A stretch of 64,000 nucleotides of DNA from Yamagishiella unicocca. Its lineage: Eukaryota > Chlorophyta > Chlorophyceae > Chlamydomonadales > Volvocaceae. Of the stretch, positions 15,187 through 57,821 are shown in pieces (the first letter of the stretch is position 1; each line of letters begins with the position of its first letter). The notes beneath the pieces were generated by a model, which saw only the letters and a list, made by a program, of their open reading frames with translations, was not told the DNA's origin and did not search any database. The DNA is taken from the NCBI GenBank assembly GCA_003116995.1, contig BDSL01000118.1:226802-290801 (forward strand), in the 5' to 3' direction. Position numbers and translations under genes: made by a program.

Positions 15187-18100
15187 ATGGACTTCGCGCG
15201 GGCAGACGCGGTGGAGGCATTCCTACACCTGCATGTCTATCGAGAATTGCAGGTTGGTAACAAAGCATTTGCGCCCATAATAGAGCTATTTCCCTTCACC
15301 GCCGATCACCCCGCACACCACCTATCCGTTGGGGGCGGCCCGCTGTTGTACGCAGGAAACTGGCGTGTGCGGTGCTACCGTGTGCCTGTCAAAGGTTGGC
15401 CGCTACACATTTACCCTGGCAAACTGTTACGGGTATGTAGGGTTGTAGCGGTGGGTTCGTGGGGTATAGGTTTGCGGTCGGGTGGGTTGGGGTTCAGGGA
15501 TGGGTACGGGGTTTACAAATGGGGCTGTCCTCGAACTCAGGGCCCATGTGGCTTTCCTTTCTCGGCGGAGGATCCCCTTGGCTTGCCACCTAACAGGGTT
15601 CCCCTAACACTATCGCAGCGCACCACCCCCTTCAAGCGTTGACCCATATGCCGACCCATGCACGCGCGCCTCTCGTGTCGTGACTGCTGGCATACGCCTT
15701 CATACGCTGGCCGCCGCCCCCGTCTGTTCTAAACTGTTTTTCCTGGCATCCACGGGTCTTCCTCGAAAGCCCCCGCCCCACGGGGTTCCCCTCAGCCCCC
15801 ATCGGCCAGTTCCGGAGCACTCTCTGACCCCACGTGATCGGCTCACTCTGCCACGACGCCGACCCACAACTCCCGCTCGGGCGCTGCAGGTTCCAGGACG
15901 CGGCTCGCGGCCTGATTCTGGACACCCGATCGTCGCTGTTTGACCTGGGGGGGTGCGCGAAGGTGCTGGCGGCGATGGCGCTGCTGCGCCTCCTGCAGGT
16001 AGGGGCCCAGGCCCTGGCCTGGCCTAGCGTGGCCTGCCTAGGGGGGCCGGGAGGGACCGCCAAGCAAGGCCAGCCTGGCCGCACACCGGCCGCTAGTGCG
16101 TTCCTCAAAGCAGCTCGCGGCTGCTGAGGCAGGCCCGCTGAAACCGTCACCGTGCGTCCCGTCGCCGCCCTGCGAGCCTCCGTCTCGCCATGAGCCCGAG
16201 TACCTGACCCCATGGGTCCGACTGCCGTGAGCGTAGGGCGCAGCTCACGGCAGTCCACTGGGGTCCAGGCTGCGCTCGTGCGGTTGGCACTCGCGCCTCC
16301 TCGCCCCCCGTTGGGATGACCTGCGCGCTCCACCGAGATACCCCAGGCGGCTGGTGCTAATGTGCACAGCACGCCCCCCCTGGGCGCACCATCTGGACCA
16401 CCATCTTCAACGCCCTTGGTTTGTCGGCCGTGGATTCGCACTATCTTTCCCCCTGGGCGCAGGAGAAGGGGCTGACTGTGGCCGCGGACGTCAACTCCGT
16501 CCTGCCGGCTGGGCTCCAGGTGCGAGGCGGGGCGCTGGGATCAGGTACTGCCCCGGCAAGTGGCGGGCGACCGCCCAAGGCTTTGGAGCGGCTGTCCTGG
16601 GGTCTGTGGCCTCTGCTGCCGCGTACCTTCGGGAACACACCAGCCCGTGTGGCGTGTTTGCGTCGGTGCGGGTGGGGCACTTGGCGTCACGATCCGTGTC
16701 GCTCCGACCAGGCCATGTCGCTCCGACCAGGCCATGTCGCTCCTACCAGGCCATGTCGCTCCTACCAGGCCATGGCCTTTGGCTGCTGGGCTTTCCAAGG
16801 CCTGCTGGGCTTTCCCATGGCTACAATTTAACCCTGCTTCGCGCCGAGCGCTACCGTATTCGCTTCCCTTCGCTTTGCCGCCCTTGGCTTCGCACATCAC
16901 CGGCCGACCGACCGACCCGCGGATCACCGGCAACGCCGCACACCACCGCAGGTTGACACGTCACGGTACGGCGGCGTTACCGTGCAGCACCTGCTGACAC
17001 ACACGTCGGGGCTGCAGCGCGGCGACCGAGGAGCGCGGAGAGCCGTGGCGGCGGGCGAGGGTGCTGAAGCCGCGCCAGGAGAGGCGGCACCGGTAGGCGC
17101 GGGCGGCGGCTGCTTCGGGGGCGTACGACAGGAAACCATTGGGGTCGGCACTGTAAATCAAATGAAGCAAAACCGACTGGGAAGCGTTCCAGCAGTTCTG
17201 GGGTGCGGGTACTGCTTGGGCGCCTGCGGGTGCTTGTGGACGGAAAGGTCATGGACCACGTCCGCAGGGCGTCGGCGTGCGGTGAGGGTCAGAGCGTGTC
17301 GTCCATGGCAGGGACGGTGCTTCGCCGGTGTCGGGTCGTTGCCGCACCTTGCACACCGTGACGGTCGACCGGGTTCTGTTCTACAACCTGGTTCTGTAGG
17401 GCGGACTGGGGCCGCGAAGAGCCGGGCCCACGCCCTGACGTGTCCATAGGCCAGCCGACGCCCTCCCTCGGCCGCTGTCCCTGCCCTCACAACCTGCGCC
17501 CCCAGTCAGCTCCGCCGCCGCTGTCGCCCCGGCCACCGGCGGCCCCGTCCGGTGCCGAGTCCAAGGCACCGAGGGCTGGGGTCAGTACCTTGATACCAGG
17601 GCAGAGGAAGAGCTCGGATGAGCTGGTGGATGTGTCTTAATTGCTGGCTGCGGATGCCTTGCGGCTGCGGGCCAGCGTGATGGATGCAGGAGGAAGAGGA
17701 GGGGGGGGGACCGGGCCGCGTCCCCATGCCGCGGGCGCGGCCAAAGTTGTTACCTGCCAGGTGCTTCCCTATCTGCTGTTCCATCCGCCTTGTAGCTGAC
17801 GGCGCACCCTCGCTGGCGGGCCATGCAGGCTGCGGACGGGACGACGACGCCCGTCATGTCGTACTTGATGGCCCAAGAGGTGTACGGCGCCAAACCGCCT
17901 GGCGTGTACAGGTGGGTACGCAAAGCTCCTTCCCGCCCGCCTCACCCACGCAACAGCCTCCCCCGGCAGGTCCCCTGCTTCCACGCTGCACCTCACGTGG
18001 TGCCGTACGCTACCTGCGGCCATGTTGCTCGCCGAACAGGGCACATGGCATTGACTACATGCTCATCGGCGCAATAGTCGAGGGCCTGGCTGGGCAGCAG

Positions 18101-21100
18101 TACGAGAGCTACGTGAAGGAGAAGCTGTTGGAACCGCTGGGCGTGCACCTCCCGTCGCAGCCTCCGGGGCCTGTCGCCTGTCGTGAAGCCGGGGCCGCGC
18201 CGGCGGACGCCGATGAGGCACAGGAGGGGTCGAGCGTGTACTTGTACGTGAGACCGGAGGCGCCGAGGGCACTGGATGAAGGTGCCGAGGCGGCAGGAGG
18301 CGCCTGCGGAAAAAGCAGCAGTCTGGAAGAGGCCCTTGCGGCAGACGAGCTGGGCCCTTCAGCAGCACCTGATAAGAGGTGATGATGCGCCCTGCCTCGC
18401 AAGCGTCCCCTTGAGCCTGTGGGACTTAACGTCTGTTTAGTCGATTGGCTGTTTGTTAGGATCCGGATCCGGATCCGGATCCGGATCCTCCCTCATCTTC
18501 ACGTGGGTGATCCAAATCCCACCACGCCTGACCCGGGGCCGCCCGTTCCCGCCTTCTATAGGGTCCTTCTTCGATGCGACCCTCCGCCGCTTACGCCCGT
18601 CGGGGGGCTTGTCCTCGTCCCCACCGACATCATCCGCCTGCTGGCGCTCTTCATACAGAGCCCCAGCAGCAGCGCCGACGACGAAGCCGCGCAGGCGGCC
18701 TCGGGGCGCAACCTTCTTGCAAGTAAGCCCACAGTCTCCATGCTGGGTGTGCTGTGGTGTCTGGCTCTGGAATCTCGGTTGGAGTGGGTTACGGAATCGC
18801 GATGGTGTGGGTTTGCGGAATCGCGGTTGGAGTGGGTTTGCGGAATCGCAGGATGCTGCATCGGCATGTTGAAAAGCCAGCATGCATGCGTTCTAAAGAG
18901 GATGAGTGCTCATGGCCCGGTGCCCATGTCGACACTTGATCTTCCGGTAATTCCGCCGTCGCCCCACCCGCTGTCCTCTTACTCCTTGCAGCGCTGTACG
19001 AGATCCGGTTGTCAGATTTCATCAAGGTACGGCACCCATCGGAACCTGTACATGTCCTCTGTACATGCGCCGCTTGCCAGACATTGCAATGCTTTAGCAG
19101 CTGGGGATTACCTGACTCGAACAGCGTGCAGCGCACCCGGCCCTTTGCGGGTGCTCTCTGCTCTATCCTGCCCTCACCCGTCTCATACCCGTCTCGTAAT
19201 CATCTTGTTCCGGCTCACGGCCGCACCGTCCAGCACCCGACCTCGAACTGACAGCTGCTTGCGCAAAACGCAGGACATCGGCGTCGCGTACGGCGGCTTG
19301 GTGTCCCTGGGTCTGGCGCACTGCGGCGACCGGGTGGTGACTTGTGAGAGCCCGCCGGCGCCGCCGAGCACACGGGAGCGAGTGCTTAGCGCGCAGGGGA
19401 CGCAGGGGGAGGCCGCCCAGCAGCAGCGCCCCTCGGCCACCGCCGCGGGCGGTGGCGGCGGCGACGCGAGCCCGGGGCACCCTTCGCTGCTGCTGCTGGC
19501 TCCGGAGAGTGGATTCGCCATGGTGGTGTCGTGCAACACCGCGGGGCCGGAGGGAGCCGCGTTCTGCCGCAACGTGAGTGCTCGTGCTGGCGCTGGGAGT
19601 ACCGAGATTCGTACAGGACGCGGAATGCGTGTGTGCGTGCGTGCGTGCTTGGGGGGGTTACATAAAAGAACCGATAACGTGACTGGGGGGGAGCCGGTCG
19701 CAGCGACGATTTGGTTGCGCGCCCCGTAAGGAAGTATGTGTTGGATACGAGTTTTGGCGGCAAGGACTGTACGTCTGTAGACGACGGGCGGACTGATCTT
19801 CTGAGGTGGTTTCGGAGGTATCAGGACGGGAAGCACCGTTCTGACTACCGGCATCACCCTGGCCAGGTGAGCTGGATTGCGCCACAAGCACGCCGGCGCT
19901 TTTTTCCGTCTTCTGCCGGCTGCAGTTCTGGCCCAGCTTGATCGCCTTGGGGCGGCCATTCGTCAGCAGCGACATTACCAGGCCCAGTCCCCTTGCCGCG
20001 ATTGCTAACCGACACGGCTATCCTCCACCCTTGCAGGTAGCCGCGAAGCTGCTGGAGCAGTACCGGCCCAGCGAGCTGCCTCGGCCCGTCGCGCGCAGCT
20101 GGCTGGCTGCTGTGCCGCCTCCCCGCCAGGACGCCATGGTGCACCTCATAGCCTTCCCGCCGGCCTGCTGCGTGGCGCCGGCGACGTTCTTTGACGCCTG
20201 GCCGCTGCTGCTTCCGGATTACATCAAGGTGGGTACGCTAGACATGTGCGTGTGGTGGTACCAGGTACCGGAGCATGCGGCCTACCGTGGACGAACTGCA
20301 CCGTGGACACCTGATCGTGCAGTTTTCGGGGCTGCGCCTGGGATGCTACAAATATAATATTGGTTGCTAAAGTACCAAATTAACCCAACGAGTTCTGGAT
20401 GATTGCACCAGCTGCGGATCCACACCATCGCATTCGCAGATCGCTTGCGCACCTGTCCTCCGGCACAAACGGAAGCTTCATCGCTGAGCTTCGCTCGAGG
20501 CCTCTCAGCGCAAACTGCTTCCTTCTTCCCGCAGGTCCACTGTATGCAGGCGCCCGGCCACGGCTCACGCCGCAGCGAGACCTGCGAGCTGCGCCTCAGC
20601 AAGCTCGTCGCGCCTGCAGCCGCCGCCATCCTCGCCAGCGTGGCCACGGACGCGCCGCTAGCGCTCTTCGGCCACGGCCTGGGGGCGCTGTGGGCGTTCG
20701 AGGTAGCGCGCCGGCTCGAGTGCTTGTACCAGCGGCAGGTGCTGCACCTCTTCGTCTGTGCCTGCGCCTCGCCGTCTTGCTTCCTGACCCGTGGGTCGGG
20801 AGGCACCGAGGCATCGGGCGCAGGAGGAGGCGAGGGAGGAGCGGCACGCAGCGCCCCGCCCAAGCGGTAGGGCCGCCGCGCCGCCGGTGACATCGCAAGA
20901 GCAACTAGCCTCATAGAGCCTTGGGGCTCTGGCGGGAACGGGGGTGCATGCAAAGTACTTCGCTGATGAGGCTGTCGGATAAGGTCCCGGCTGGCCAGTG
21001 CTCCTGCGGGAGCTCCCTGGTTTCTCCTCCTCTTTTCGGGCTGGGCGATGGCTCGTTCTGGCGTGTGTTGTGACTACCGCGGGGATGGCGTTGGTTTTGT

Positions 21101-22499
21101 AAGATCGTCACCTGTCAGGCGGTGACGAGACCTACCTGCCGCACCGCGCACAGGTTCGAGCCCTGGCGGACGAAGGACCAGCCCGTTGGTGGCGAGGCAC
21201 AGGGGGACGCTCCGGAGCTGTACGAGCTGCCGGACGAGGCATTTATTAGCGCGTGTCGGAACCACCCGCGCTGCCCTCCAAAGATCCGCTCACACGTAAG
21301 TCAGTCTTGGAGAGAACAGGATACCGTAGCAGGGACTGCAACGTGCTGGTCGGCAGCAGGTGACGTTGAGCACGTTCGTGCGTCAGGGCGCATTGCACGT
21401 GTGGCGCTAGTGGGCAGCTTCGCAGTTACAGGTTATAAAGTGGGTTCGGAGCATCGGGTGCGTTACGTGGCGACCAAGTCGGTACACGAGGAGCTCCTAG
21501 TGTCGAGCTTATCGACTTGCAGCCGTTTCGAACGGCTCCCTTCTCTCTTCTGAGCTTTCTGACGCGTTTTGGCTTGTGTGGGATCACACAAACGAGGGCA
21601 ATGAACATCTGTCCTTACTCAACACGTAAAGTTTGGATATGTGGGTCCGAGCGCAGGAGCACATGCCTTTGTTCCGGGCGGACATCGAGGCTGAGATGAA
21701 GTACACGTTTGTGCCGCCAGCGCCAACCCTATGTGCGTCTGTGGCGGCTGCGCTTGCCAGTGTCCAGAACAGGCAAGTCGTCGAAGTCGCGCCCACGAAA
21801 CGCATCAACTGGATCGACAGGCTGGTTTGTCAGTTTCCACCACTCCATCTGCAGACGTGGCATAGAGGCACGGAAGCACGCGCCAGTCGTCGCAACTCCA
21901 CAAGGTATTATCCACTATGTCGCATGCATCCCAACCTGATCCACGAACCCGCAGAGTGGACGAGGAGGTGCGCATCAGCCAGGGTCTGTTGTCATGCCCC
22001 ATCACTGTGCTGACGCCCGAGGAGGAGGTGGCGCTAGGCACGGACCAGACGGCGGGCTGGGAGCAGGTGCGTCTAGCTGGGAGCTTCGAGGTCTTTACCC
22101 AGTAATGTACGGAACGTACCAAGACCAGAGCTGGCTCGGGGCATCGTACCGTGCATGCAGCACCCCGCCGCCCCGAACTCAGGTATACTCTCTACCCGTG
22201 TTTTACTCCATTGCCTCCCACAGGTCACCACCGGCCAGGTGCGTTTCCAGACCGTCCCGGGCGACTACCACTGCCTGGAAGATCGCAAGCACCGCAGCCA
22301 AGTCGTCGCGTGCGTCACTGGTGTCCTTGGTCGCCAGATGTCGGTGCATGTGCCCTGGCTGGCAAAGTTGCGCCCAGCCGGTATGGGCGGCCGGTGGGCG
22401 GGCGGCGGTTCGGGGAAACATAGCGGCAACAGCCGCCCTGGCTCGGCCGCGGGTCCAGCCTTGACCTTACATTTGCCGCCCATGTATCCCCGCGGGTAG
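15187..22499 (+). CDS. Beta-lactamase-like / type II thioesterase-like fusion with degenerate catalytic sites
   Basis: Fourteen exons join with compatible phases: 15890-15998, 16463-16519, 16952-17092, 17829-17911, 18040-18378, 18562-18722, 18992-19026, 19274-19573, 20037-20228, 20535-20866, 21154-21295, 21657-21772, 21955-22066, 22224-22499 (~797 residues). A first exon 15187-15503 fits in phase but is uncertain. Residues up to ~400 resemble the class C beta-lactamase/LACTB fold: LFDLGGCAKVLAA at the SxxK position, VTVQHLLTHTSGL, a GIDYMLIGAIVEG block, GGLVLVPTDIIRLLALF, and SLLLLAPESGFAMVV. The second half matches type II thioesterases: HLIAFPPACC, APGHGSRRSE, FGHGLGALWAFEVARRL, and VPGDYHCLED near the C-terminus. 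The catalytic Ser is Gly in both domains (GCAK for SxxK; GHGLG for GHSMG), so hydrolysis is unlikely. Role unknown; no targeting signal is clear. The intron at 21773 uses a GC donor. Confidence 0.85.
16401..16439 (+). repeat. Dispersed repeat beside a 3' splice site, copy A
   Basis: Shares about 37 of 39 positions, including GGTTTGTCGGCCGTGGATTC, with 44975-45013 in an RsmH intron. Here it ends about 24 bp before the acceptor of exon 16463-16519. Confidence 0.75.
16699..16774 (+). repeat. 19-bp tandem repeat, four copies
   Basis: Four units of TCGCTCC(G/T)ACCAGGCCATG, starting at 16699, 16718, 16737 and 16756. The first two carry G and the last two carry T at one position. It lies in the intron after exon 16463-16519. 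Confidence 0.9.
18459..18488 (+). repeat. GGATCC hexamer repeat, five copies
   Basis: Thirty bases made of five GGATCC units, so five BamHI sites in a row. It lies in the intron between exons 18040-18378 and 18562-18722. Confidence 0.95.
18769..18850 (+). repeat. 24-25 bp tandem repeat, about four copies
   Basis: Units starting GGAATC at 18769, 18793, 18817 and 18842, each containing variants of CGCGGTTGGAGTGGGTTTGC. Located in the intron after exon 18562-18722. Confidence 0.75.
19656..19689 (+). repeat. Dispersed intronic repeat fragment
   Basis: GGTTACATAAAAGAACCGAT and the following ACTGGGG block match 27487-27520 with a few changes. At 27487 the same block directly precedes the 40-bp element that also occurs at 861-900. 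All three loci are inside introns. Confidence 0.55.
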
Positions 22500-26200: not shown

Positions 26201-29200
26201 TCCCGGGTTGGCGCCGTACTGGAAGGTGCAGTGCACGGCATATGGCGAAACACGCTGCACCTGCGACGCACACGGGAGACGGTCAGCCCGCGACAGCAGC
26301 ATGGTGGCGACGCGGCTCCTTCCTCGCCCGTGGCTTCAGTGCCCGTTCGAGACTGGCGTCGCTGTCCATTGACAAACAGCGAACATCTCTGGTGGATAGA
26401 GCTGCCGGTCCGCAGTACAGCCGTCAGGGACGTGGTGGACAGCGGTGCCGGTTCGCAGTACAGCCGTCAGGGACGTGGTGGACAGCGGTGCCGGTTCGCA
26501 GTACAGCCGTCAGGGACGTGGTGGACAGCGGTGCCGGTTCGCAGTACAGCCGTCAGGGACGTGGTGGACAGCGGTGCCGGTTCGCAGTACAGCCGTCAGG
26601 GACGTGGTGGACAGCGGTGCCGGTTCGCAGTACAGCCGTCAGGGACGTGGTGGACAGCGGTGCCGGTTCGCAGTACAGCCGTCAGGGACGTGGTGGACAG
26701 CGGTGCCGGTTCGCAGTACAGCCGTCAGGGACGTGGTGGACAGCGGTGCCGGTTCGCAGTACAGCCGTCAGGGACGTGGTGGACAGCGGTGCCGGTTCGC
26801 AGTACAGCCGTCAGGGACGTGGTGGACAGCGGTGCCGGTCCGCAGTACAGCCGTCAGAGATGCCGCAAGGAAGGCGCTCCTCCAAGTACAGGCTAACAGA
26901 AGCCTCCAATGTGCGACATAAGGTTTTCGAGGATTCCTGGCCGGCGCAGCCCGGGGACAAGGTCCGGGGACAGGGGGCACAGTACGGCTAGGTCCGAGGC
27001 TTTGGGGCTGATTCAGTGGTAGCCCTCCTTACTGGTCCTCACCTCGTACAGCCGCTGCACGTAGTAGGTGTGGCCGCCAGAAAAGGAGGCCACCGGCAGC
27101 ACCCCCACCCCCAGGGTTCCATTTGCGCCCATGAAGACACGCTTCTGGTTCGGATGAACCTGTTCGATCATTTAAGTGCGAGGGAGGTGACTAAATAATG
27201 CGTACCGTGTTGTCCGGCAATACTGGGCTATGTCAATGCCCAAGCAGGTTGTTACGAGCAAGGGCAACCGTCAACTACTGTGTACGAACATGAACATCCA
27301 ACTGCAGCGCAACGCAAAACGTCAAGATCACCCGGCACGGCAACAGCGCAGAGCAAAGGATATTTCGCTGATAGCAAAGTAGACGTATACGCTTCGTACC
27401 TTAGCTACGGGGTCCCAGCCCTGCCGCGCAAGATCATTGAAGGCATTCTGGTCCCTGAGGCCGGGAAGCGCGGGTTGGAATTGGGGGGTTACAATTGAAG
27501 AACCGGTAACTCGACTGGGGGAATGTAGTTGGTGCATAGCCTTCATACTTCGGAACGCGCGCGCATGCTACTGGACGGCCACACATACGGACGCGACGAC
27601 GGAATTTGGGGGGGGGGTAGAGGAAGAAAAGCAACCAAAGGCGGCTTGCAAGGACAGCTGGTCCAGCATGCAATGTGCACACACACAAGCCGCGCAGCTG
27701 CTTACGAAGCAATACGATAGCCCATAAGCGAGCCATCAGGCGGCAACACCCCTGGCATCGTTCCTCTTTCCTCGCGTGACTACTTCTTCTTCCGGCCCTT
27801 CCCTTGCGTCGGTCTGTCCTACTCACCAGTACTTGGGGTCCGAATTTATGGCATCAAGCCATGAGTTTACGAACTTGATGGAACGGTCGGAAAACCTGGC
27901 ATTGACACCAATGCGGCGAGGTGGGGACGCACGGGTTGGATATCCACGCCACCATTCACGCCCTTATGCAGCAATGGAACGAACAGAACATTATGCACTG
28001 TCCCGTGCATAAACTCTCTGCTTCAATCTGCCTATCTTTCGGTTTACCAAACCCGTAGCCATGGCGCGTGCTGCAGTTAGGGAACTGAGGGGTCTCACCA
28101 CCAGCGCCTTGGTCAGCTGCTGGACTCAGGCACATCCCGGCATGGGCTCATGAAGCACATCACGCATCAAGCCTAACTTCGCTCCACGTTGTTGCCCCTC
28201 CAGGTCTTCGACATCTTTAGGGCGCTACGATAGAACATGCACCAGCCACCGCTACCGGGCCACGCCCTCCTTAGTCACCTGAAAACTCCTAGAACTAGGC
28301 CACGTAGGTGACCCAATGGCCTGCAACCAATCTACTTCTGTCCGGTCCTACCATGAATGGTGCTTTGCGTCATGTACCTGCCACCATTTTCAGTTCCACT
28401 CCCGCGCCGCCCTAACCCCCTATAGGCCCACAGGCTATGCTGATCCTGCTCCGATACAGCACTCAGCGGTCCCCCGCGGGGTCTCCGTGCCTTGTAGCCC
28501 CACCTGAAGAACATGAGGCCAATGTTCATGGGGGCCTGCGCATCTTCCGGCCGCTCCAGTCCGCTGTCGCCCGGCTGCAAGGTAGTCGCAAGATTGTCGG
28601 ACGTCACCAGGATATCAGCCTGAGGACGACACGCCACGGAGCAAGGTACCAGGGTCAGTCGTCAGTTCTTGTAAGCCCCCAGGCAATCGCGTACCCGTTG
28701 CAAGCATGCGGGTGCAAGCCGGCCCTCAACGAGGCCGAACACCGTTGAGGACTGACGCACGGTAGGCGCAGCTGAAGCAAACACGGAGCGCACGCGACAG
28801 CGAGGCAGACGCCAAGCGGCTACACCCCCCTGCATTCATCTACAAGCAAACTACGCCACGTGAAGGCACGCACCTGAGGGTAGCGGCCAAAGTACTCCAT
28901 GACGTCCCCCAGCAGCATTACATCCTGCGTGAGGTTCAGCCCCGTCAGGACTAATCAGCGTAACGACGAAGCCGGCTGGAGGTGCGGCCAAGACACTGTG
29001 CTGGCGAATCAAGCGAATTCCACAACCGAAGGCTCCACAGCAGTGCGCGGCTGTGCACCAGGCATCCTGGCCACGCCGCGCACGGGGACAGCTCGCCACC
29101 TCGTACCGGCATGGCCTCAGGACCCCTATTTCCGTGCCTGGGAGGCAGGGCCCCAGGGAGGCATCCTCACCACATCCACGAGGAGCAGGTCGAGTTCCAA

Positions 29201-55036: not shown

Positions 55037-55659
55037 GGCTCCCTTCCTTGAAAGCCAAAAGCCTCCAATTAGCCGCAATATCAAGTCAAAACTCCACAGC
55101 TGCTTAAAGGCCGCTGCACGTGCAGTAAGTTGGTCAGGACCCGCTCGCGTCCTGGCGCACAAGACGACAAGCTTGCTCGAGTAAACCTGGGTAACGGGAA
55201 GCCAGAAATCTCAAGATGGTGCCCTATGAGTTATGCAGCTCTGGCGCATGCCAGCATTGCGCTGTTTCGCCGGGCGTAGCGTTTTACTCCTTATTATTAT
55301 TAGGAAAGGAAGATAACATCGAGGCATATGTGCTTATCGATTAGCGTGGCTAATGCGCGGACGAAGGGGTTATGGTGCGCCAGGGAGGGTGGCTTGGGGT
55401 CCTGGCGAGGGGAGAGACGCGCCCAAACTTGCTTCTTTGTATCGTCATTCTTACCATGCTGATATCATTTCTAACGCTGCTCTGAGACTTGGGGACCACG
55501 ACATTTGCATAGCCCCGTGCCTGTCTGTCCTCGGCCCAATGGCCACCCCACCCACTTAGGTAGCGCACGCCGCTTCGCATGCTGCGACCTCCGGGAGCTT
55601 AGGGGCGGTGGGGTGCAGAGGCTAGGCAGGCGCACTAGCAGCGAGCGAGCCTAGCAACG
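55037..55659. promoter_or_regulatory. Divergent intergenic region between Prp18 and PP2A B56
   Basis: 622 bp separate the two start codons, so both promoters must lie here. No clear TATA box or conserved element was identified. A short A/T-rich block (TTATTATTATTAGG) lies near 55290. Confidence 0.4.
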
Positions 55660-57821
55660 ATGTTGAAGAGCATGAAGCAGAAGTTCAGCGGAAAGAAGGA
55701 CGCCAGCAAGAACAAGGACGACTCTCAGCCCTCGACCAGCGCCAAGGCGGGCGCACCTGCCGCTAGCAAGGCACCGGCGCCCCGGCCAATCTCAGCCATC
55801 CGGGAGAAGCCGCCGCTGCCGGTCATCAACGAGCAGGCTCTTCAGCAGTACTATGCGGAGCCCCTGCCCAGCTTCCGGGATGTCTCGCCAGCGGAGAAGC
55901 AGTATCTCTTCGTTCAGAAGCTGCACCTGTGCAGCTTCGGGTTCGACTTTGCGGACCCCACCAAGCACGTCCGCGAAAAGGAAATCAAGCGGCAGACGCT
56001 ATTAGAGCTGGTGGACTACGCCAACTCTGGGGCAGGGAAGTTCACGGAGGGTGTTTCGGAGGATATTATTTACATGCTCAGCAACAACCTTTTCAGGACG
56101 CTGCCACCCGTTCGGAGCCATGGCGATGCCGAAGGCAACTACGACGCTGAGGAGGAGGAGCCTAGCTTGGACCCGGCATGGCCGCACCTCCAGGTGTGTG
56201 TCTGGGCTTGGGATGCGTGGCTGGGCGCGGGCTGGGCGTAGGTCGGCCCTGTGGCCCCGGCTGCGAGCTCATGGCGCCCCGCCCATCTCGTCGCGGCCTC
56301 CCCCAGATCGTGTACGAGTTTCTCCTTCGCTACGTGGTGTCGAACGACACTGATGCCAAGATAGCGAAAAAGTACATTGACCAGCAGTTCGTGCTGAAGC
56401 TGCTGGAGCTTTTCGACTCGGAGGACCCCCGGGAACGCGACTACCTCAAAACGATCCTGCACCGCATATATGGCAAGTTCATGGTGCACCGCCCGTTCAT
56501 CCGCAAGGCCATCAACAACGTTTTCTACCGCTTCATCTTTGAGACGGAGCGGCACAACGGGGTCGCTGAGCTGCTCGAAATCCTCGGCAGCATTATCAAC
56601 GGCTTTGCACTGCCGCTGAAGGAGGAGCACAAGGTACGCGCATGCATAGTACTAAATGTGTACACAGGAAAACGCAGGAACTGCTGGTGGTTTAGTGGCT
56701 CTGTCGTCACGATGGCTGTTCCGTTTTTGTTATTCGCAGCTATTCCTACAGCGGGCGCTCATGCCGCTGCACAAGCCCAAGTGCGTGGCGATGTACCACC
56801 AGCAGCTGGCATACTGCGTCACGCAGGTATGAGACGGTAAAATGACTCCAGAGACAGGTCGGCATTTCCAGACATGTGGCCTCACTGTATATCGGCCTCT
56901 TCCTGTGCCTGCAGTTCGTCGAAAAGGATTCAAAGCTGGCCGAGCCGGTGCTTACAGCCCTCTTGAAGTACTGGCCAGTAACAAACAGCCAAAAGGAGGT
57001 GTTGTTCCTTGGGGAGCTGGAGGAAATCCTGGAGCTCACCCAGGCACCCGAGTTCCAGAAAGTTATGATCCCTCTCTTCAAGCAGCTAGCAAAATGCCTC
57101 AATAGCCAGCATTTCCAGGTAAGGCGGGGCAGAGGGGCAAATGTAGGGCCTCGTCTCTACGTGTGTTGTTGCGGTGCTAATCCTTGGCTACTTCCGTCGG
57201 CTCTCTTCAGCAAGGAGAGGTTATCTCGGGGGTTGTGGTGAAGATATGGCAGTAATGGGTGTTGGGATACGGCCGCTCACTTAAATGTGGTTCCCCATGG
57301 TTTTGGCAGCATAAATGGTTAGCCGGACAACTACAGTGCCCAAACGACGAGGGCGGGCGCCGCGCTGCATGCCGATAGCGCTTTGGTGGCGTTGGCGGTC
57401 CCGGATGCAGCTGGGAGCAGAGGCAAACGCATACGCACCCGGCTCAGGCTGTCGCCCCGCGCAAGCTGGCACACGAGATCATGATGCACGTGGTCTTCTC
57501 TTGCGGCAGGTTGCGGAGCGCTCGCTGTTCCTGTGGAACAACGAGTATATCGTCAACTTGGTGGCGCAGCACCGGCATCAGCTGTTGCCCATCCTGTTCC
57601 CGGCGTTGGAGGAAAACACGAACAGCCACTGGAACCCAGCTGTGCACGGCCTCACGTGCAATGTGCGCAAGATGTTCCAGGAGCTGGACGAGCAGCTGTA
57701 CGAGGAGTGCAAGCGCAAGTACGAGGAGGAGCAGGCGTCGGAACGGCAGGCGATGGAGACGCGGGACAGGAAGTGGGAATATCTCCAAAAGCTGGCGATT
57801 CAAAAGAGCAACGGCCGGTGA
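55660..57821 (+). CDS. PP2A B56 (B') regulatory subunit
   Basis: Regulatory subunit that recruits substrates to protein phosphatase 2A. Exons 55660-56193, 56307-56633, 56740-56826, 56915-57118 and 57510-57821 are in phase, giving 487 residues, normal for the family. A variable Lys/Ser/Ala-rich N-terminus of about 50 residues precedes the HEAT-like B56 fold. Diagnostic segments: [117 protein letters not shown] and [20 protein letters not shown]. The C-terminus is short and charged. The start codon begins the longest in-frame N-terminus after an upstream stop. Confidence 0.97.

What the first reader, a model, noticed from the sequence alone, without database searches (positions are those of the whole stretch)
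15187..22499. Beta-lactamase-like domain fused to a type II thioesterase-like domain
Fourteen exons with matching phases link two serine-hydrolase folds of different superfamilies in one ~800-900 residue protein. I know of no characterised algal protein with this pairing. In bacteria both folds occur around peptide or polyketide synthesis, but no synthase module is visible here, so the algal fusion is likely to have a separate role.
Basis: partly seen in the sequence, partly recalled or inferred. Interest (0 to 1): 0.85.

Follow-up and report, generated by a model that had tools for sequence, protein, structure and literature searches.

The report
Algal fusion of two dead hydrolases
A gene in a green alga related to Volvox fuses a beta-lactamase-like domain to a thioesterase-like domain, and in the algal relatives that could be read both parts have lost the amino acid that such enzymes use to cut their targets, so the protein has probably been kept for a binding or sensing job rather than as an enzyme.

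The parts
15187..22499 (+). whole coding region, 17 exons, 881 aa fusion protein
15187..19573 (+). exons 1-11: beta-lactamase-like (PF00144) half, aa 1-492: exons 15187-15252, 15356-15432, 15890-15998, 16463-16519, 16952-17092, 17506-17580, 17796-17911, 18040-18378, 18562-18722, 18992-19026, 19274-19573
15951..15953 (+). codon of Gly69 in D-L-G-G-C-A-K, the place of the SxxK serine
18041..18049 (+). codons Ala215-His216-Gly217 in place of the Tyr-x-Asn motif
   Evidence: ungapped phmmer alignment to 2qmi
20037..22499 (+). exons 12-17: end of the beta-lactamase-like fold, hinge and type II thioesterase-like (PF00975) half: exons 20037-20228, 20535-20866, 21154-21295, 21657-21772, 21955-22066, 22224-22499
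   Evidence: fold shown on the V. carteri relative
20676..20678 (+). codon of Gly604 in F-G-H-G-L-G-A-L, the place of the thioesterase nucleophile serine
22025..22027 (+). codon of Glu777 (TPEEE), the place of the thioesterase catalytic Asp
22266..22271 (+). Tyr805-His806 (PGDYHC): by alignment Tyr stands at the thioesterase catalytic His position, His one residue later

Best explanation
The gene encodes a conserved double pseudoenzyme. A serine beta-lactamase/DD-peptidase-like domain is joined, by a conserved stretch that continues that domain's C-terminal end, to a type II thioesterase-like alpha/beta-hydrolase domain. By parsimony both domains lost their nucleophile before the UWO 241 lineage and the volvocine lineage parted. 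The domains and the thioesterase 'elbow' were kept, so I infer that the protein works by binding, not cutting: most likely the two old active-site pockets, or the thioesterase's carrier-protein face, bind a small molecule or an acyl/peptidyl carrier and report or position it, as a sensor or scaffold. Shown: one reading frame, two domains, loss of both serines in all family members covering them, strong conservation of the serine-less elbow, one algal group in the thioesterase tree. Inferred: no catalysis (about 0.88). Inferred more weakly: a ligand- or carrier-binding sensor/scaffold role (about 0.45).
For: Both Pfam domains in 5 of 6 relatives and in the window protein (P0004 shows PF00144 only, as its annotated protein leaves the homologous frame before the elbow). 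SxxK serine lost in 6 of 6 covering it: window GGCAK, V. carteri GGCAK, Gonium GGCAR, V. africanus GTCAK, Tetrabaena GRCAK, UWO 241 GGLAH (Edaphochlamys P0003 lacks the N-terminus). Tyr-x-Asn replaced in 7 of 7 by Pro-x-x or Ala-x-x. Thioesterase serine is Gly in 6 of 6 covering it. Controls: Ser in 80 of 80 kept bacterial thioesterase loci; SxxK in 5 of 5 presumed-bacterial beta-lactamases P0007, P0008, P0010, P0011, P0012; in the same genome, SMTK just upstream of the C141 beta-lactamase exon and GHSYGG in the first C21 thioesterase exon. GHGLGALxAFExARR is the most conserved block of the core alignment, 12 of 15 columns invariant, with five sequences and also with the four that have the N-terminus. 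Thioesterase tree: the five algal rows form one group, 100/100 support.
Against: No expression, solved structure or assay data. UWO 241 still has the thioesterase Asp and His (GDAD, GEH), and a Cys sits next to the missing serine in the five volvocine proteins covering it (G-x-C-A), so an odd chemistry is not excluded. Register: a Tyr two residues before the Tyr-x-Asn place (Y-R-P/A) is kept in 6 of 7, and the thioesterase His of the window protein and V. carteri is only one residue off; a shifted alignment could restore either, though not the serines. His408-Cys-Gly could be a remnant of the third beta-lactamase motif (also His in Gonium and V. africanus; Arg in V. carteri, Edaphochlamys and UWO 241). 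The elbow block also resembles that of the active bacterial enzymes, so its conservation partly reflects the fold. The SxxK stretch itself is less conserved (7 of 15). The beta-lactamase half modelled poorly outside a few helices. Selection was judged from protein conservation only; no dN/dS was computed.
Confidence: 0.7

Rival explanations
1. The protein is still an enzyme, using another nucleophile (for example the Cys beside the lost serine in the beta-lactamase domain) or direct water attack in the thioesterase domain using the remaining acid and His.
For: Cys70 is kept in the five volvocine sequences covering it; UWO 241 keeps the thioesterase Asp and His.
Against: UWO 241 has Leu at the Cys place and His at the SxxK Lys place; the thioesterase His position is Tyr or Phe in the window protein, V. 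carteri and Edaphochlamys; Tyr-x-Asn is gone in 7 of 7 by alignment.
Confidence: 0.1
2. The serine-less thioesterase domain acts as a regulatory subunit or carrier-protein chaperone for the giant type I polyketide synthase present elsewhere in this genome.
For: Many ketosynthase exons lie on C21 at about 656-720 kb with thioesterase exons at 723 and 729 kb; type II thioesterases act in trans on carrier proteins (recalled); PMC7073580's table lists one type I PKS for Gonium, which has the fusion.
Against: The gene is on another contig. The same table (rows seen) lists no type I PKS for V. carteri and Tetrabaena, which have the fusion, and one for C. reinhardtii, where none of my three protein searches found the fusion; that table may have missed genes.
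Confidence: 0.15
3. Two neighbouring genes, or a decaying pseudogene, wrongly joined.
For: No cDNA; many short exons; the relatives are gene predictions and four of six are visibly incomplete or misread (P0002 C-terminus, P0003 N-terminus, P0004 C-terminus, P0005 middle and C-terminus).
Against: The same order and a similar hinge in independent genomes, including the 33%-identical UWO 241 protein; 74% and 72% identity to V. carteri in the two halves of the trimmed core.
Confidence: 0.05

Closest known systems
Type II thioesterases of PKS/NRPS pathways (RifR 3fla, BorB 6vap, RedJ 3qmw; PF00975)
   Different: Ser to Gly in 6 of 6 algal proteins covering it; catalytic His lost or shifted in the three volvocine members covering it; fused to a second domain.
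Class C beta-lactamase / DD-peptidase / ClbP-like family (PF00144; 2qmi, 3o3v, 1cef)
   Same: PF00144 match and phmmer matches to 2qmi (1.3e-13) and ClbP (3.6e-7) for the linker-trimmed half.
   Different: SxxK serine and Tyr-x-Asn gone; long low-complexity inserts; C-terminal fusion.
Retasked dead alpha/beta hydrolases such as the GID1 gibberellin receptor and neuroligins (recalled, not tested)
   Same: Hydrolase fold kept, catalysis lost, ligand or partner binding gained (recalled).
   Different: Other alpha/beta-hydrolase subfamilies, not fused to a second dead hydrolase (recalled).

Membership tests
PF00144 serine beta-lactamase / DD-peptidase (S12) | profile match over the curated cut-off | tested here: met
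   84.4 bits against cut-off 27
PF00144 serine beta-lactamase / DD-peptidase (S12) | SxxK nucleophile and Lys | tested here: not met
   Ser absent in 6 of 6 algal proteins covering it; Lys kept in 4 of 6
PF00144 serine beta-lactamase / DD-peptidase (S12) | Tyr-x-Asn motif | tested here: not met
   7 of 7 lack it by alignment (ungapped alignment to 2qmi); a Tyr two residues upstream is kept in 6 of 7, with no Asn after it
PF00144 serine beta-lactamase / DD-peptidase (S12) | third motif, Lys/His-x-Gly | tested here: inconclusive
   His408-Cys-Gly in the window protein; Arg at that place in V. carteri, Edaphochlamys and UWO 241; alignment uncertain there
Type II thioesterase (PF00975) | profile match and alpha/beta-hydrolase fold | tested here: met
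Type II thioesterase (PF00975) | GHSxG nucleophile serine | tested here: not met
   GHGLG in 6 of 6 covering it; Ser in 80 of 80 kept bacterial loci
Type II thioesterase (PF00975) | catalytic His | tested here: not met
   of four proteins covering it: Tyr (His one later) in the window protein and V. carteri, Phe in Edaphochlamys, His in UWO 241
Type II thioesterase (PF00975) | physical or functional link to a synthase | tested here: inconclusive
   0 of 34 ketosynthase matches on contig C118; a PKS is on C21; partnership not testable
Pseudoenzyme | catalytic residues lost in orthologs while the fold is conserved | tested here: met
   fold modelled well for the thioesterase half only
Pseudoenzyme | absence of activity | not testable with these tools
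   needs protein assays

The most novel reading that the evidence does not exclude
A two-headed, non-catalytic receptor of chlamydomonadalean algae: two unrelated serine-hydrolase folds, each with the nucleophile removed, form one sensor whose pockets bind acyl, lactone or peptide signals (the algae's own or bacterial) and pass this on through the hinge between them.
Probability: 0.22. Interest if true: 0.8.

Novelty: new variant of a known kind. Interest (0 to 1): 0.6.

Why it matters
Single dead hydrolases reused as receptors or adhesion proteins are known (recalled). A conserved fusion of two dead hydrolases from different superfamilies did not come up in the papers searched here. The most conserved block of the protein is the very site where catalysis should occur but, without its serine, probably cannot; this points to a retained binding role that a knockout or ligand screen in V. 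carteri could test. It also warns against annotating these proteins as beta-lactamases or thioesterases from domain hits alone.

Tried and rejected
First gene model (913 aa) read through intron 1 and put about 60 wrong residues (intron, then exon 2 in the wrong frame) into the N-terminus. Searches used it; Pfam was repeated on the corrected model and the linker-trimmed beta-lactamase half was searched against the PDB again. The homolog search was not repeated with the corrected full model, but searches used V. carteri and an alignment with the corrected model.

Paralogs in the same genome: the loci around the other PF00144 exon (C141) and PF00975 exons (C21) gave no tblastn match to the family at 1e-2, so they are not close copies.

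A bacterial source for the fusion: none of the 6 non-algal hits of the profile search carries both domains (no organism is given for these six, I presume bacteria). For the 80 kept loci (of 174 confirmed, the other 94 not seen) the earliest matched query residue was 243 and 263, so none matched the front of the beta-lactamase half; this is a rough check. 0 of 45 plasmid records covered 80% of the query. The origin of the fusion stays open.

Absence from C. reinhardtii: none of the three protein searches returned it, but each scored only the roughly 8,000 candidates sharing most words, within a length range, so absence is not shown.

The second (32 rows, mean 58) is good for the thioesterase half (about 631-1000, mostly 78-97 outside inserts at about 761-780, 821-850 and 901-930) and poor for most of the beta-lactamase half. 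Beta-lactamase chains are not in the 50 rows shown by either fold search; one domain filled the list.

The conservation ranking could not count the first ~110 columns because P0003 lacks them; one search repeated it with the four sequences that have them, with the same top block.

Full report
Observation. The window lies in a 133-Mb genome (G000:C118:226802-290801). Reading 15187-22499 with splice sites chosen by hand and guided by relatives gives 17 exons and an 881-aa protein. Intron 15 has a GC donor; the other introns are GT-AG. Pfam finds PF00144 (1.1e-23) and PF00975 (6.9e-19).

One gene, not two. Six relatives were found in a search of about 5.8 billion proteins (five, the sixth; in each call only about 8,000 candidates were scored): V. 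carteri P0001, Gonium pectorale P0002, Edaphochlamys debaryana P0003, V. africanus P0004, Tetrabaena socialis P0005 and Chlamydomonas sp. UWO 241 P0006. Five of six carry both domains; P0004 carries PF00144 only, because its annotated C-terminus leaves the homologous frame. P0003 lacks its N-terminus, P0002 its last part, P0005 a large middle part and the end. The joint between the domains is conserved: FCRNVAAKLLEQYRPSELP in the window protein and similar forms in V. carteri, Gonium, Edaphochlamys, V. africanus and UWO 241. The suspected split (intron 19574-20036) falls inside it. V. carteri and the window protein share 74% (beta-lactamase half) and 72% (thioesterase half) in the trimmed core alignment.

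Both active sites are gone. Beta-lactamase half: the SxxK site reads GGCAK in the window and V. carteri, GGCAR in Gonium, GTCAK in V. africanus, GRCAK in Tetrabaena and GGLAH in UWO 241. Serine is lost in 6 of 6 that cover it; Lys is kept in 4 of 6. The Tyr-x-Asn site reads Ala-His-Gly in the window protein and Pro-x-x in the six others; the ungapped phmmer alignment to 2qmi shows the same replacement. A Tyr two residues upstream is kept in 6 of 7 and could matter if the register were shifted. A possible third-motif remnant, His408-Cys-Gly, is not conserved. Thioesterase half: GHSxG reads GHGLG in 6 of 6 that cover it (window, P0001, P0002, P0003, P0005, P0006). Of the four covering the catalytic His position, the window protein and V. 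carteri have Tyr (His one residue later), Edaphochlamys Phe, UWO 241 His; the acid is Glu or Asp.

Controls. A scan of 84,980 bacterial and archaeal genomes used two patterns from the algal alignment, one containing GHGLG itself and one just after it. It confirmed 174 relatives and kept 80. In 80 of 80 kept loci the aligned residue is Ser; none of the 80 contains the GHGLG pattern and all 80 contain the other. The other 94 were not seen. Five of five presumed-bacterial beta-lactamase hits keep Ser-x-x-Lys. Two unrelated loci of the same genome keep theirs: SMTK on C141 and GHSYGG on C21; the second C21 thioesterase exon reads ATSSFG there.

Constraint. In the trimmed alignment of five algal proteins (P0006, P0001, P0002, P0003, window) 126 of 660 columns are invariant, and the densest 15-column block is GHGLGALxAFExARR, 12 of 15. 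P0003 lacks the first ~110 columns, so I repeated the count with the other four: 171 of 660 invariant, the same block on top with 12, the SxxK stretch 7 of 15. The serine-less elbow is thus the most constrained part. The same block is also well kept in the active bacterial enzymes, so part of this is the fold; the point is that Gly, not Ser, is fixed in it. In a tree of 25 thioesterase domains the five algal ones form one group (100/100), with UWO 241 branching first, then Edaphochlamys, Gonium and the pair V. carteri plus window (midpoint root; the pair at 92/85). UWO 241 belongs to the Moewusinia (PMC6802932, one passage read); the others belong to the volvocine side (recalled). The losses therefore look old and shared, not the decay of one gene.

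Setting. None of the 34 ketosynthase matches lies on C118, but the genome has a giant multi-exon type I PKS on C21 with thioesterase exons just after it. The table of PMC7073580 (rows seen) lists one type I PKS for C. reinhardtii and Gonium, and none for V. carteri and Tetrabaena; since the last two have the fusion, a fixed partnership with that synthase is doubtful, unless the table missed genes.

Mechanism. The simplest account is a protein kept for binding. Type II thioesterases dock on carrier proteins and the beta-lactamase fold binds acyl-D-peptides or esters (recalled); with both nucleophiles removed, such pockets could hold a ligand without turning it over and so serve as sensor or scaffold. 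Loss of catalysis is strongly inferred (about 0.88); the sensor or scaffold role is an inference from analogy (about 0.45); ligand and partner are unknown.

Literature. Searches combining beta-lactamase, thioesterase, Chlamydomonas, volvocine, Volvox, Gonium and pseudoenzyme, a search for five locus tags, and one for 'type II thioesterase' with 'green alga' listed 14 papers, of which I looked into two by passages (PMC9667741, PMC7073580); neither those passages nor the other titles concern this protein. Only open-licence PMC papers are covered. The sequences exist in public databases as hypothetical proteins named after the domains.

Noticed in passing
G000:C21:656000-730000 (L003, L005, L006-L008): Giant type I polyketide synthase locus with many ketosynthase exons and two thioesterase-type exons after them, one with GHSYG intact, the other reading ATSSFG at that place.
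   Followed up: partly
G000:C141:129588-129707 (L001, L009): A separate beta-lactamase-like gene with an SMTK motif just upstream of the matched exon, not a close copy of the fusion.
   Followed up: partly
window 55639-56837: Exons of a protein phosphatase 2A B56 regulatory subunit gene (PF01603).
   Followed up: no
window 26390-26857: Minisatellite: 43-bp unit, 10.9 copies, 98% matches.
   Followed up: no
window 18459-18488: Five perfect GGATCC repeats inside intron 8 of the fusion gene.
   Followed up: no
P0006 (Chlamydomonas sp. UWO 241): Thioesterase half has lost its Ser but keeps Asp and His, while its beta-lactamase half has lost both Ser and Lys: a possible intermediate in loss of the thioesterase triad.
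   Followed up: partly
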